A stretch of 54,517 bases of DNA from Thermovibrio sp. (GTDB taxonomy: Bacteria; Aquificota; Aquificia; Desulfurobacteriales; Desulfurobacteriaceae): the NCBI GenBank assembly GCA_015488335.1, contig WFNZ01000020.1:1-54517 (forward strand), given 5' to 3'. A program made the position numbers and the translations under genes. Numbering within the stretch: the first letter of the stretch is position 1; every line of letters begins with the position of its first letter. Below the pieces are notes generated by a model. That model did no database searches, was not told the origin of the DNA, and saw only the letters and a program-made list of their open reading frames with translations. This document shows, in pieces, positions 49,466-54,515 of this stretch.

Positions 49466-51410
49466 GAAGTTAGCCTTAGCTTTCCTTCTACTTGCTGGAA
49501 TATTTATCGTTGGCTACTTCGGGGTCTCCGCCCTCTCCTCTTTTTCCGGAGAGTTCTACCTGAACAATCCTCTGTTTCACGTCCTCATGGCCTTAATCCT
49601 TATAGTTATAACTATCCTTTTTATACTGTTTGTCAGAAACCTCGCCCTCTTTTTCTTTCCCCACTTTAAAACCAACCTGCGGGTAAAAATATTCACAGCC
49701 TTTCTCCTCTTGGTTTTAGGGCCGGCACTCTTCTCAATATTCCTGGCTTCAGGCGTAATAAATCAGGGACTTGACAGGCTCCTGAGAATTCAGGTTAAGA
49801 GGATCGTTGAAACCTCTTACGAAACGACAGAGAACTTCTTAAGGTTCATAGAGTCTGACCTTGAGAGAAAAGAGAAACAGCTTGCCTACAGGAAAGTTTA
49901 CCCGTATACGCTGAAAGCTTACGGTATAGACGGTTTTTTCAGGGAAAGTGGAAAGAGGAACGAGGAATTAGGGAACTTTCCCCTTTCTGAAGACGAAATA
50001 AAACAGATTAAAAAACTTAAATATTATGCCTTTTTTGATAAAACATCAGGTCAGGTAGTTGTATGCAAAAGGTTTGGCCACAATTTCGTCTGCGTATCCA
50101 AAAAGCTTCCCGAAAATTTAAAAAAAGAGGTTGCTCAGATAGAGGAACTCCACTCAAACTACCAGACATTAGTTGCCTTCAAAACCCCAATAAAAGCGGT
50201 CTACACCTTTACTTTCGGAGTAATGGGAATTGCAGTTCTGTTTGGAGCTCTCTGGTTCGCCCGCTACTTTGAAAGGAGAATTTCCATTCCCATTGAAGCC
50301 CTCTACAGAGCAACCGAGAAGATATCAACAGGAGACCTTTCGGTCAAAATACCGGAAGATGAAGCAACAGACGAGCTGAAACACGTAATTCACGCTTTCA
50401 ACTCAATGGTAGAACAGCTCAAGCTCCTCCAGAAAAACCTTGAAGAGAACAGAAAATACCTTGAGGACGTCCTGAACGCCATCTCTCCTGCAATCATTAC
50501 CTTTGACTTCTCCGGCAGGGTAATATCCTGCAACAAAGAGGCTAAAAAGCTTTTTAAACTCTCAGAGGAGTCAAAAGGAAAGTCTATATGGGACATCCTC
50601 TCAAGGTATCCAAACTTTAAAAAAGTTGTAGAAAACCTGATAGAGAACAACAAAAGCCGTGGAGAGGTAAGAGAGGAGATAGACGGAAGAGAAAAGTTCC
50701 TTACAGTTGAAGTTATAACCTCTCCGGAAGTGGGAGACAGAATCTTAATAGTTGAAGACGTTACAGAACTGGTAAGGGCAAAAAAGTCGGAAGCCTGGAG
50801 AGAAGTAGCCCAGAGAATCGCCCACGAGATTAAAAATCCACTAACTCCAATCACGCTAAACGCCGATAGGATAAAAAGGTTGTTTTCAAAGGGTAAGCTT
50901 AACGACGAAAACCTCTCAAGAGCTGTAGATTCAATTTTAGAAGAAGTTGAAGTGATAAAAAGGCTCATAGATGAGTTCAGAAAGTTTGCAAGACTACCCC
51001 TACCGGAAAAGAGACTTACAGACCTGAACGACCTGATTAAAAGCACTTTGGAGCCCTACGAGAACAGGATAAAGATCAAGTATGAGTTTGAGGAGATACC
51101 GAAAATCCCCGTAGACAGGAGCCTGATAAGGGAAGTTCTGATAAACCTTATAGACAACAGCATCTCTGCCGGAGCAACAGAAGTAAAAGTCTCAACAACA
51201 GAAAAAGACGGAAAAGTTTACATGGTCTTCAGAGATAACGGCCCCGGCATTCCGGAAGAGATAGCCGATAAACTTTTCTCTCCCTACGTCTCAACAAAAG
51301 AGGAAGGCTGGGGATTAGGCCTTTCAATCGTTAAGAAGATCGTAGAAGACCACGGCGGAAAAATCTACACGGTAGATAGAAATACCTTCGTCGTGGAGCT
51401 CCCCCTATAA
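49452..51410 (+). CDS. NtrY-like sensor histidine kinase
   Basis: A 652-aa kinase starting at TTG. Three N-terminal transmembrane segments (within ~5-105) and another at ~243-265 flank a sensor loop. A HAMP region (FERRISIPIEALYRATEKISTGDLSV), a PAS domain (~340-420, SPAIITFDFSGRVISCN) and a HisKA/HATPase pair follow. H458 lies in AQRIAHEIKNPLTPI, with N-box LINLIDNSI and G-boxes DNGPGIPEE and GWGLGLSIVKK. NtrY kinases sense nitrogen or redox state and partner NtrX. No response regulator is in the window, so its partner is elsewhere. Confidence 0.92.
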   Translation: MWVYKKLALAFLLLAGIFIVGYFGVSALSSFSGEFYLNNPLFHVLMALILIVITILFILFVRNLALFFFPHFKTNLRVKIFTAFLLLVLGPALFSIFLASGVINQGLDRLLRIQVKRIVETSYETTENFLRFIESDLERKEKQLAYRKVYPYTLKAYGIDGFFRESGKRNEELGNFPLSEDEIKQIKKLKYYAFFDKTSGQVVVCKRFGHNFVCVSKKLPENLKKEVAQIEELHSNYQTLVAFKTPIKAVYTFTFGVMGIAVLFGALWFARYFERRISIPIEALYRATEKISTGDLSVKIPEDEATDELKHVIHAFNSMVEQLKLLQKNLEENRKYLEDVLNAISPAIITFDFSGRVISCNKEAKKLFKLSEESKGKSIWDILSRYPNFKKVVENLIENNKSRGEVREEIDGREKFLTVEVITSPEVGDRILIVEDVTELVRAKKSEAWREVAQRIAHEIKNPLTPITLNADRIKRLFSKGKLNDENLSRAVDSILEEVEVIKRLIDEFRKFARLPLPEKRLTDLNDLIKSTLEPYENRIKIKYEFEEIPKIPVDRSLIREVLINLIDNSISAGATEVKVSTTEKDGKVYMVFRDNGPGIPEEIADKLFSPYVSTKEEGWGLGLSIVKKIVEDHGGKIYTVDRNTFVVELPL

Positions 51411-51428
51411 CCTAAACTCCTCTCAGGT

Positions 51429-51980
51429 TCAGTGATCTTTCCTGTTCTTTCTGTGGAGCTCCTCAAAGTTCAGAATATCCGTATACTCCCACTCCCTGTA
51501 AGCCATTCCGTAAATACCTTCTTTTGTTAGCTGGTTGAGGAGCTCCCTTTTTATGCTAAAAGTACCAAGGATTAATATCAGCTCTTTATCACTGTACTCA
51601 GGAAAAAGTTCTTTAAACCTCTCCGCTTTCTCCTTTACCTGACCTATATGCTCCTGCCTGAGAGTACTCTTAACTTCAATCAGAAAAACCTTATCCTCAC
51701 AAACAACCATCACATCAAATTCCTCTCTTCTACCGTCCCTCTTCCTCTCAACATTCATCATCAAGTCAACTGGATCACAATCAAAATACTTCCTTACCAC
51801 AGGCCTCGTAGCAGGGAAAATAATATCCCCAACAATTGCTCCCATCTCATTAGCGAGTTCACCCCATTGCTTATTCATACGTTTAACTTCCTTATCCATT
51901 CTATCCTTAAACTCCTTCATTTCATCCTTAAACTCTTTCATTTCTCTTTTGAGACTCTGTATTTCCATCTCTGTCTTATG
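51429..51980 (-). pseudogene. DUF3782-like PD-(D/E)XK protein, 3' part, split by the IS element
   Basis: The frame KTEMEIQSLKREMKEFKDEM begins a coiled-coil, followed by a nuclease-like core with EEFDVMVVCEDKVFLIEVKS (D...EVK). A start at 52004 adds only residues encoded by IS DNA. The true N-terminus lies on the far side of the element at 53365-53424 (MPDLTDRVDRLEKAIMELVY). Joining at CAT (51980) restores one frame of 203 codons. The 3' part could still be translated from the IS, but the original gene is broken. Confidence 0.75.
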
Positions 51981-51996
51981 CTGAACGTGACATCCT

Positions 51997-52016
51997 CCTA
52001 CCACTAAAGTGATAGG
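51997..52016 (-). repeat. IS right-end hairpin (probable omega-RNA 3' stem)
   Basis: CCTATCAC-TTTA-GTGGTAGG, an 8-bp stem with one G-T pair, contains the tnpB stop codon. In IS605 elements this region forms the 3' scaffold of the TnpB guide RNA, and the flanking DNA (minus strand, from 51980 leftward) would supply the guide. Confidence 0.6.
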
Positions 52017-53269
52017 CTTCCTGCTTCACCGTGGGATAACTTCCACTCCACAGGCGTTACTTCCCCGCAGTCCACGGGTAGGGTTTTTAGGAGTTTTCCT
52101 TCTCCCTTAAGTTTCTCTATCGCTACCTTGAGTATGTTCCTCGCAGAATTAACGTCTCTGTCTATCTCTCTACCACATTTTTGACACTTAAATGTCCTTT
52201 CTGAAAGTCTTACCCTCTGCCTATGTCCACAGAAAGAACAGGTTTGAGTGGTAGGTTCATATCTATCTACAAAGAACACAGGAATAAGAGTCGCAAGACG
52301 TTTCAGCCTTGCAGTTATTCCTCCTATCCCTGTGTTCTGAACCTGCTTTCCAAATAATCCTTCGTGCCAGCTCTTTATGTAGTCGTCTTGAACTGCTATG
52401 AGGGAGAACCTTTTGAGGTAGCTGATTACTTTGTTCTGTGTATCTTTTCTCCTGTTCTGGATATACTCCCACTCTTTCTGGAGTTTCTGCTTGGTCTTAA
52501 GGTAGTTTCTGCTGCCTTTAACTTTCCTTGAAAGTTCTCTCTGGAGCTTTTTGAGTCTTTTGGTTTCAGGAACATACCAACTTATCTTCTCTCCTGTTGA
52601 CAGCGTTAGCTGGTGTTTTATCCCAAGGTCTATCCCTACTGGTTGTTTAACTTGATTTTTTTTGATTTCCTCTAAAATCCTCTTTTTCGGCAGGTAGCAG
52701 GTGATATAAAGGTAGTATCCTGAGGGTTTCTTCACAAGCAGTCCGTTTGCTATTTCACACTCTTTAGGTAGCTGGTGGAGTCCTAAGACCCTGATTTTCT
52801 TCTTTATTCCCTGTATCTTTACTCTGTTCCTGTCTCCAGAAATCTTGTAGGTTATTCCATACTGCTTTAGCGGTATACTCCTAACATCACTTTTAAATTG
52901 AAGTTTCCCTACTTTTTTCCCTTTTTCTTTAGCTCTTTTAAGCGAGATGAGGGAGTGTTTTATCCTCTCAACTATTCCCTGTCTCATCTGAGAAGAGAGG
53001 GTTTTAATCTCTCTCTTTTCAAAACCTTCTGAAGTTTTGATTTCAACTTCTTTTAGTTTCCAAGTATTTCCGTTTAGTCGGTTTTCAATGTCTGCTACAA
53101 CGTAGTTATAGAGCCACTTGGCTTCAAGGAAGAGTCTGTTGAGCTTTTCTATATCAGACCTTGAAAGGTTCTGGAGTTTTAACTGATAGACACGGGCTAC
53201 TTGGTGTTTCCTTTTTTCTCTGGTTTCTTTAAGTGTTTGTCTTATCTTTGCCTGTTTGAGTTCGTTCAT
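52004..53269 (-). CDS. tnpB: TnpB, RNA-guided nuclease of IS605 family
   Basis: A 421-aa protein. An N-terminal helix-rich domain precedes a split RuvC: VGIDLGIKHQLTLS (first Asp), FSLIAVQDDYIKSWH (second site) and DRDVNSARNIL (third Asp). The zinc finger CSFCG...CQKCG sits between the last two. At the second site the sequence is Q-D-D where related proteins commonly have Glu, so activity may differ. TnpB cuts DNA next to the target motif using an omega-RNA and keeps the element in the population. No GGAGCTCC octamer occurs in this gene. Confidence 0.93.
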   Translation of the reverse strand: MNELKQAKIRQTLKETREKRKHQVARVYQLKLQNLSRSDIEKLNRLFLEAKWLYNYVVADIENRLNGNTWKLKEVEIKTSEGFEKREIKTLSSQMRQGIVERIKHSLISLKRAKEKGKKVGKLQFKSDVRSIPLKQYGITYKISGDRNRVKIQGIKKKIRVLGLHQLPKECEIANGLLVKKPSGYYLYITCYLPKKRILEEIKKNQVKQPVGIDLGIKHQLTLSTGEKISWYVPETKRLKKLQRELSRKVKGSRNYLKTKQKLQKEWEYIQNRRKDTQNKVISYLKRFSLIAVQDDYIKSWHEGLFGKQVQNTGIGGITARLKRLATLIPVFFVDRYEPTTQTCSFCGHRQRVRLSERTFKCQKCGREIDRDVNSARNILKVAIEKLKGEGKLLKTLPVDCGEVTPVEWKLSHGEAGSLSL

Positions 53270-53304
53270 AGTTTAAATTTAACTCTCAGAGTATTTGGTT
53301 TCAA

Positions 53305-53316
53305 CGGCTTATGCCG
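53305..53316. repeat. IS left-end hairpin
   Basis: CGGC-TTAT-GCCG, a 4-bp stem upstream of tnpB within the element's left end, typical of the subterminal hairpin recognised by TnpA. Confidence 0.5.
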
Positions 53317-53364
53317 TGCGATTCATCCCTGCTTTGAAGGGGAGATCGTTCTCGCTTTTTTATC

Positions 53365-53424
53365 GTAAACAAGCTCCATAATAGCCTTTTCCAGCCTATC
53401 TACCCTATCCGTTAAATCAGGCAT
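53365..53424 (-). pseudogene. N-terminal remnant of the DUF3782-like gene
   Basis: From ATG 53424 the frame reads 20 codons ending MELVY. It then runs into IS sequence and stops after 13 foreign codons (ending SPSKQG). Its heptad-like DLTDRVDRLEKAI fits directly onto the coiled-coil of the 3' part at 51980. Confidence 0.7.
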
Positions 53425-53507
53425 CTAACGTCCTCCGGGGAAAACCAGTTACTCAACCTGAATCTATTTTCCAAATAAAGAGACCACAACAATCAGATAT
53501 TCTATTC

Positions 53508-54515
<1,008 letters not shown>

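What the first reader, a model, noticed from the sequence alone, without database searches (positions are those of the whole stretch)
51429..53424. tnpB-only IS sits inside a DUF3782-like gene and can be removed on paper
Joining 53365 (after GTTTAC) to 51980 restores a continuous 203-codon coiled-coil/PD-(D/E)XK protein. The target TTTAC precedes the left end and no duplication exists, as in IS200/IS605. The insertion therefore dates the element as recent and defines both its ends.
Basis: seen in the sequence. Interest (0 to 1): 0.55.

Follow-up and report, generated by a model that had tools for sequence, protein, structure and literature searches.

The report
tnpB-only insertion sequence splitting a gene

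Summary
The insertion is real; one end was misplaced. A same-genus genome (G005) has the uninterrupted gene in the same gene order and lacks exactly window 51987-53364 (1378 bp). Relatives' copies stop matching at that same right end. The restored gene has 205 codons, not 203. A TTTAC flank, no target duplication, hairpins at both ends and no tnpA in the genome fit a tnpB-only IS200/IS605 (IS1341-like) element. No TTAC-preceded copy of its predicted guide exists in the genome. "Recent" is not shown: single copy, nearest relatives about 80% identical, left hairpin weakened.

The more interesting point lies in the TnpB. Its RuvC-II glutamate is Gln294, while residue 296 is acidic. That pairing holds in 85 of 85 relatives across many phyla; 8 of 8 canonical rows and 56 of 56 Glu-bearing control ORFs have a non-acidic 296. 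RuvC-II-rearranged TnpB clades are published (PMC10278001); I could not check whether this is one of them. Overall: ordinary element, unusual nuclease active site.

The parts
51987..53364 (-). complete IS element, 1378 bp (corrected ends)
   Evidence: syntenic empty site in G005; ends of related copies
53365..53369 (-). target / predicted TAM TTTAC, outside the left end (5' of the element in tnpB sense)
   Evidence: TTTAC in 8, CTTAC in 2, ATTAC in 1 of the 11 copies whose left end was located, window included (the script looked for TTAC)
51981..51986 (-).
51967..51986 (-). predicted 20-nt guide of the reRNA (host DNA next to the right end)
   Evidence: position follows PMC8612924 and PMC10278001; own-genome search
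52004..53269 (-). tnpB, 421 aa, RNA-guided endonuclease family
   Evidence: NCBIfam NF040570 150.1 bits over cut-off 100; Pfam PF07282, PF01385; fold match to TnpB 8h1j
52628..52630 (-). RuvC-I Asp214 codon
   Evidence: Asp in all 84 of the 85 Q rows that have a letter there
52388..52390 (-). Gln294, at the place of the canonical RuvC-II Glu
52382..52384 (-). Asp296, predicted shifted RuvC-II acid (D or E in 85 of 85 Q rows)
   Evidence: control
52154..52156 (-). RuvC-III Asp372 codon
   Evidence: 83 of 84 letters are Asp
51987..52071 (-). 3' part of the reRNA/omegaRNA with right end; overlaps the end of tnpB
   Evidence: covarying structure in 32 copies
51997..52016 (-). right-end subterminal hairpin
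52018..52054 (-). RAGATH-18-like stem-loop, below the family cut-off (31.2 bits, cut-off 44.9)
   Evidence: alignments of relatives' matches
53301..53364 (-). left end with two hairpins, the first weaker than in relatives
53365..53424 (-). 5' fragment of the interrupted host gene (20 codons)
51429..51986 (-). 3' fragment of the interrupted host gene (coiled coil + PD-(D/E)XK-like domain)

Best explanation
This is a non-autonomous, tnpB-only member of the IS200/IS605 group (IS1341-like). A Y1 TnpA acting in trans, since lost from this genome, inserted it as single-stranded DNA right after TTTAC, behind codon 20 of a coiled-coil/PD-(D/E)XK-like gene (the insertion is shown; TnpA's part is inferred). 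[quoted passage not shown] TnpB would cut the TTTAC-flanked empty site left by any excision, so that repair restores the element (inferred from ISDra2). TnpB does this with a rearranged RuvC site, Asp214 - Asp296 - Asp372, the RuvC-II acid being two residues downstream of its usual place, where Gln294 now stands (inferred from conservation).
For: Syntenic empty site lacking exactly 51987-53364. Relatives' copies share the right end ...GTCAC and differ beyond it. Hairpins at both ends. No Y1 TnpA in the own genome (with 5 of 14 control genomes ringing). tnpB is intact and its family is under purifying selection: window against 10 relatives dN 0.12-0.19, dS 0.95-1.60. reRNA covariation: 91.7% of cells paired against 78.4% in shuffles, 70 double-change cells against 21. 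In the own genome TTAC plus the first 16 guide bases, with up to 3 mismatches, is found only at the right-end junction itself (preceded by TCAC) and at one 3-mismatch site (TAAC). Gln294 with an acid at 296 in 85 of 85 rows; Glu with Leu in 8 of 8 canonical rows; in an independent scan 56 of 56 Glu ORFs have a non-acidic 296. The Q group is one side of one branch, 100/99 support.
Against: No nuclease activity or reRNA expression is shown. The structural model has low confidence at 291-310 and no coordinates could be measured. The 294/296 state is one event on the tree, so 85 of 85 is not 85 independent tests. E338 is a second candidate acid in 36 of 85 rows. The left-end hairpin of this copy is weak, so it may no longer be movable.
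Confidence: 0.78

Rival explanations
1. The TnpB of this group has lost cleavage and works as an RNA-guided DNA-binding roadblock or repressor (TldR- or Cas12m-like).
For: The canonical RuvC-II Glu is replaced by Gln throughout the group; in ISDra2, E278A is described as catalytically dead (PMC8612924).
Against: Asp214 and Asp372 are kept, and an acid appears at 296 in 85 of 85 rows. Multi-copy elements with intact ends and 11 of 79 loci with a Y1 TnpA nearby look like ordinary mobile elements, not domesticated genes. One RuvC-II-rearranged TnpB clade member is reported active (PMC10278001).
Confidence: 0.15
2. The replacement acid is Glu338, just before the zinc finger, as in Fanzor-like 'Ealt' TnpBs, not residue 296.
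For: Glu338 lies between a strand (331-334) and the zinc finger, near the published Ealt place, and is nearly invariant among the 17 nearest sequences.
Against: It is Glu in only 36 of 85 rows, Phe in 40, and Thr in copy L041. It stands 6 residues before the first Cys; the published pattern ExxxxxxC (PMC10711439) needs 7.
Confidence: 0.2
3. The element ends where the first reader put them (51981) and GTTCAG is IS DNA.
For: The join at 51980 is also in frame.
Against: G005 and 6 further spanning homologue loci carry the Gln codon; related copies diverge after GTCAC.
Confidence: 0.01
4. The host fragment is not dead: the tnpB stop overlaps an in-frame GTG (TAGTG, 52002-52006), and coupled re-initiation makes a 191-aa product, so the insertion is tolerated.
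For: The 191-aa frame is open; window-lineage changes in the gene (7) are not clearly more than G005-lineage changes (5) over 194 sites.
Against: TAGTG is part of the right-end hairpin and recurs in many copies, so it is probably coincidental; few changes are also expected from a young insertion.
Confidence: 0.25

Closest known systems
IS1341-type (tnpB-only) elements of the IS200/IS605 group
   Same: tnpB only, subterminal hairpins, 5' target kept, no duplication
   Different: nothing essential; the ends here are TTTAC| and TCAC|
ISDra2 TnpB (PMC8612924; PDB 8exa, 8h1j)
   Same: RuvC plus zinc-finger architecture, reRNA overlapping the 3' end of tnpB, target motif = TAM logic; best PDB fold match is 8h1j, TM 0.61/0.70
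   Different: RuvC-II Glu278 is Gln here, with an acid two residues on; TTTAC rather than TTGAT; no tnpA
RuvC-II-rearranged TnpB clades RII-r3 / RII-r5 (PMC10278001)
   Same: an atypical RuvC-II that may keep activity; one RII-r5 member cuts DNA
   Different: the text I read does not say which residues moved, so whether this group is RII-r3, RII-r5 or neither is open
Fanzor / pro-Fanzor TnpBs with Ealt (PMC10711439)
   Same: no canonical RuvC-II Glu; in the Aquificota subset a Glu close before the zinc finger
   Different: DLG/DFG not DPG; Glu one residue off the published spacing and absent from most of the group
RAGATH-18 RNAs of IS607 TnpBs (PMC11061315)
   Same: the nested stem-loop core CCUGUGGAG...CG-UGAAGCAGGAA
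   Different: below Rfam's cut-off (31-35 bits, cut-off 44.9), and beside an IS200/IS605-type element; [quoted passage not shown]

Membership tests
IS200/IS605 group, IS1341-type (tnpB only) | tnpB present, tnpA absent from the element | tested here: met
   only tnpB inside 51987-53364; no Y1_Tnp in the genome
IS200/IS605 group, IS1341-type (tnpB only) | subterminal imperfect hairpins at both ends | tested here: met
   right-end hairpin covaries in 32 copies; left-end hairpins fold, the first one weak in the window
IS200/IS605 group, IS1341-type (tnpB only) | insertion 3' of a fixed short target, no target duplication | tested here: met
   TTTAC flank; empty site differs by exactly the 1378 bp; TTAC at the left end of all 10 relative copies whose left end was located, of 32 tried (the script looked for TTAC; one search shows the same flanks without that condition)
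IS200/IS605 group, IS1341-type (tnpB only) | mobilised by Y1 TnpA in trans | not testable with these tools
   a same-genus element with tnpA (G004, L062) shares both ends partly, but its left flank reads TTTAG
RNA-guided TnpB nucleases | curated family score | tested here: met
   NF040570 150.1 bits, cut-off 100
RNA-guided TnpB nucleases | canonical RuvC D-E-D triad | tested here: not met
   Glu position is Gln294; acid at 296 instead. Rearranged clades are still counted as TnpB in PMC10278001
RNA-guided TnpB nucleases | RNA-guided DNA cleavage | not testable with these tools
   needs an assay
Fanzor-like Ealt TnpBs | ExxxxxxCxxC spacing | tested here: not met
   EPTTQTC: Glu338 is 6, not 7, before the first Cys; regex from PMC10711439
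RII-r3 / RII-r5 TnpB clades (PMC10278001) | position in the published tree | not testable with these tools
   defining paper (10.1073/pnas.2308224120) not held; supplements not available
RAGATH-18 RNA (RF03064) | score over Rfam gathering cut-off | tested here: not met
   31.2 bits against 44.9
DUF3782 (host gene) | score over Pfam cut-off | tested here: not met
   13.6 bits against 24.4 in 2 of 3 homologues; no DUF3782 row among the 7 matches of the window fragment

The most novel reading that the evidence does not exclude
An old, phylum-spanning TnpB lineage (Aquificota, Bacillota, Spirochaetota, Actinomycetota, archaea and others) replaced the RuvC-II catalytic Glu by Gln and moved the acid two residues downstream (E-D-L to Q-x-D/E), giving a naturally re-registered, still active RNA-guided nuclease that has not been described at residue level.
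Probability: 0.22. Interest if true: 0.55.

Novelty: new member of a known kind. Interest (0 to 1): 0.3.

Why it matters
The insertion gives a clean, base-exact empty/filled pair that fixes the element's ends, its target motif and its natural guide. The TnpB group offers a direct test of how a RuvC nuclease can move a catalytic acid along the chain without losing function, which bears on how Cas12-type active sites evolved.

Tried and rejected

Glu338 as the moved catalytic residue (Fanzor-like Ealt): my first reading after the Aquificota copies; dropped when the wider set showed Phe there. My first acid-column count used residue 295 in place of 294 and mislabelled the two groups; one search replaces it.

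TnpB-only as a rule of the group: rejected, since 11 of 79 loci carry a Y1 TnpA within the fetched stretch.

Recent insertion: not supported by copy identity (nearest about 80%) nor by host-gene decay (7 against 5 lineage-specific changes).

Library papers with the residue-level definition of RII-r3/RII-r5 were not found (searches; look-ups).

RAGATH-18: matches in the window and, among 18 loci searched, in 7 (5 of this group, 2 tnpA-linked elements), all below cut-off; kept as a lead only.

Full report
OBSERVATION. The window lies in a 1.65-Mb, 70-contig genome (G000, 99% complete). The closest named records with this TnpB are Desulfurobacteriaceae (Aquificota), so the organism is very probably of that family (inference). 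On the minus strand a 421-aa tnpB (52004-53269) separates 20 codons at 53365-53424 from an open 3' part ending at 51429.

ENDS. A search of 61 genomes (own included) with window 51429-53424 found a same-genus genome, G005, with the uninterrupted gene. Its stretch L032 matches window 50607-51961, 51923-51986 and 53366-54409 in that order: the upstream gene (a histidine-kinase-like protein), the host gene and the downstream gene (GalE-like; both names are my reading of the translations) keep their order, and exactly 51987-53364 is missing. G005 reads GAGCTTGTTTAT|GTTCAGCATAAGACAGAG, the window GAGCTTGTTTAC|[1378 bp]|GTTCAGCATAAGACAGAG. In 32 copies whose right end was then picked by a motif, sequence is conserved up to GTCAC (31) or GTCAT (1) and differs beyond it. 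Of 13 loci with host-gene homologues, 8 align across the junction; 7 have the Gln of VQ/IQ/AQ, and one distant one (L031) has a gap there. One homologue (L047, G006) has a stop a few codons after this point.

WHAT KIND OF ELEMENT. Flanks: among 33 copies including the window, a left end was located in 11; TTTAC precedes it in 8, CTTAC in 2, ATTAC in 1 (the script looked for TTAC, but the same flanks are visible without that condition). No duplication. Hairpins at both ends: the right one covaries strongly (helix 3: 6 of 7 pairs with double changes, 94.6% of cells paired); the left ones fold in the window and in the 10 copies tried, but the first left hairpin has about 4 inner pairs in the window against 6-8 in relatives. 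No Y1 TnpA in the own genome, no second copy and no second TnpB-type zinc-finger domain. Y1 TnpA occurs in 17 of the 61 genomes. This is a tnpB-only IS200/IS605-type element. A possible helper: in same-genus G004 an element with tnpA and a different, canonical TnpB has similar left and right ends (right 72% over 89 nt, left 82% over 44 nt), though its left flank reads TTTAG. A caution on tnpA dependence: G016 holds two copies differing by dS 0.004 in different flanks, with no Y1 TnpA found; the transposase may have been lost or transient.

HOW IT LIKELY WORKS. In ISDra2 the reRNA is the 3' end of tnpB plus right end plus about 16 nt of flanking DNA, and the target motif is the TAM (PMC8612924, passages). 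PMC10278001 (passages and section 13) says the same of the right end and guide. Here the 85-nt right-end segment folds with covariation: 91.7% of 541 cells paired against 78.4 +/- 0.9 in shuffles, 70 double-change cells against 21.3 +/- 3.8, slid versions 44-61%. The structure was drawn from the window row, which favours it over slid versions; 32 of the 33 copies at hand went into this alignment (L088 was left out). RNAalifold finds the same right-end hairpin but mostly other pairs in the 5' part, so the RAGATH-18-like part is less sure. The predicted guide starts GTTCAGCATAAGACAG. Searching the own genome for TTAC plus these 16 nt with up to 3 mismatches gives two places: the right-end junction itself (TCAC, so not the predicted TAM) and a 3-mismatch site on C4. 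The element therefore should not cut its own junction, but would cut a precise empty site. G005's empty site matches the guide over 20 of 20 nt but has TTTAT.

THE TNPB. It is a TnpB by curated score and fold: best PDB matches are 8h1j and 8iaz, both TnpB; mean pLDDT 78. The place of the catalytic RuvC-II Glu holds Gln294. A profile of 17 relatives searched against one-per-species genomes gave 79 loci (one scan motif lies near residue 294 but does not include it, and the list keeps the best 80 of 124 stretches). In an alignment of 93 rows (canonical rows included; relatives at least 370 aa; some loci occur under two names), 85 have Gln294 and all 85 have D (29) or E (56) at 296; the 8 with Glu294 all have Leu at 296. 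Shorter rows were dropped, with 99 rows, 91 are Q with D/E, 2 are E with L, 6 have gaps. Columns with at least 93% acid among Q rows are only 172, 214, 296, 370, 372 and 408. As a control, a scan of viral contigs with canonical TnpBs gave 64 loci and 58 usable ORFs: 56 have Glu, with L 44, I 10, F 1, K 1 at 296; the two without Glu are a short mis-hit (L226) and L223, which has Gly there and a Glu 7 residues before its zinc finger. In a tree of 47 rows the 39 Q rows are one side of one branch, 100/99 (rooting unknown, one very long canonical row). 11 of the 79 loci have a Y1 TnpA within the stretch, so the group includes ordinary autonomous elements. dN against dS for the window and 10 relatives: 0.12-0.19 against 0.95-1.60.

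So the most likely triad is Asp214 - Asp296 - Asp372, the middle acid moved two residues on. Glu338 is the rival: Glu in 36 of 85, Phe in 40, and one residue off the Ealt spacing of PMC10711439 (passages and section 23). A dead nuclease is less likely because an acid is kept at all three steps. PMC10278001 names major TnpB clades with RuvC-II rearrangements (RII-r3, RII-r5) and reports one RII-r5 ortholog active; it does not state the residues in the text I read. The census paper it rests on was not held; that it reports rearranged sites in several branches I recall from its abstract. I therefore do not claim the active site as new.

THE HOST GENE. The 3' part shows an EEFDV...FLIEVKS arrangement, as in PD-(D/E)XK nucleases (motif recalled); Pfam matches of that kind (NERD, Hjc, PDDEXK_10) and DUF3782 are all under cut-off. 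With G006 as outgroup, 7 changes fall on the window lineage and 5 on G005 over 194 sites; dN 0.043, dS 0.558 between them. This neither shows decay nor dates the insertion closely.

OTHER PAPERS. PMC11061315, PMC11423790 and PMC9956272 were seen as passages. IS608-like cleavage-site conventions and the TldR family are recalled, apart from the abstract of PMC13418256 in a search listing.

VERDICT. Real insertion, right kind of element, right end corrected by 6 bp, 'recent' unproven. The element is ordinary; its nuclease belongs to a widespread group with a shifted RuvC-II acid, which deserves a short check against the published clades and one mutant series.

Noticed in passing
window 52382-52390: TnpB Gln294/Asp296 in place of the canonical Glu/Leu; the pairing is fixed in the whole relative group.
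   Followed up: yes
window 52018-52054 (-), and L033, L034, L040, L043, L044, L063, L064: RAGATH-18-like RNA core (31-35 bits, cut-off 44.9) at the 3' end of IS200/IS605-type tnpB genes, although a 2024 paper ties RAGATH-18 to IS607 TnpBs only.
   Followed up: partly
L033 and L034 (G016): Two almost identical tnpB-only copies (dS 0.004) at different sites in a 99% complete genome without any detectable Y1 TnpA.
   Followed up: partly
L062 (G004, same genus): A tnpA+tnpB element with a different, canonical TnpB shares parts of both ends with the window element but has TTTAG at its left flank: possible helper or module exchange.
   Followed up: partly
L041 (G007): A divergent copy with Thr instead of Glu at position 338 and DRDWKSA instead of DRDVNSA in RuvC-III.
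   Followed up: no
L223 (viral contig): TnpB-like protein with Gly at the RuvC-II Glu position and a Glu 7 residues before the zinc finger, the published Fanzor-like spacing.
   Followed up: no
L047 (G006), L018 (G038), L025 (G055): Host-gene homologues: one with a stop early in the coiled coil, and two loci with neighbouring duplicate copies.
   Followed up: no
window 52002-52006 (-): The tnpB stop overlaps an in-frame GTG of the host 3' fragment (TAGTG), a possible site of translational coupling; it is part of the right-end hairpin.
   Followed up: no
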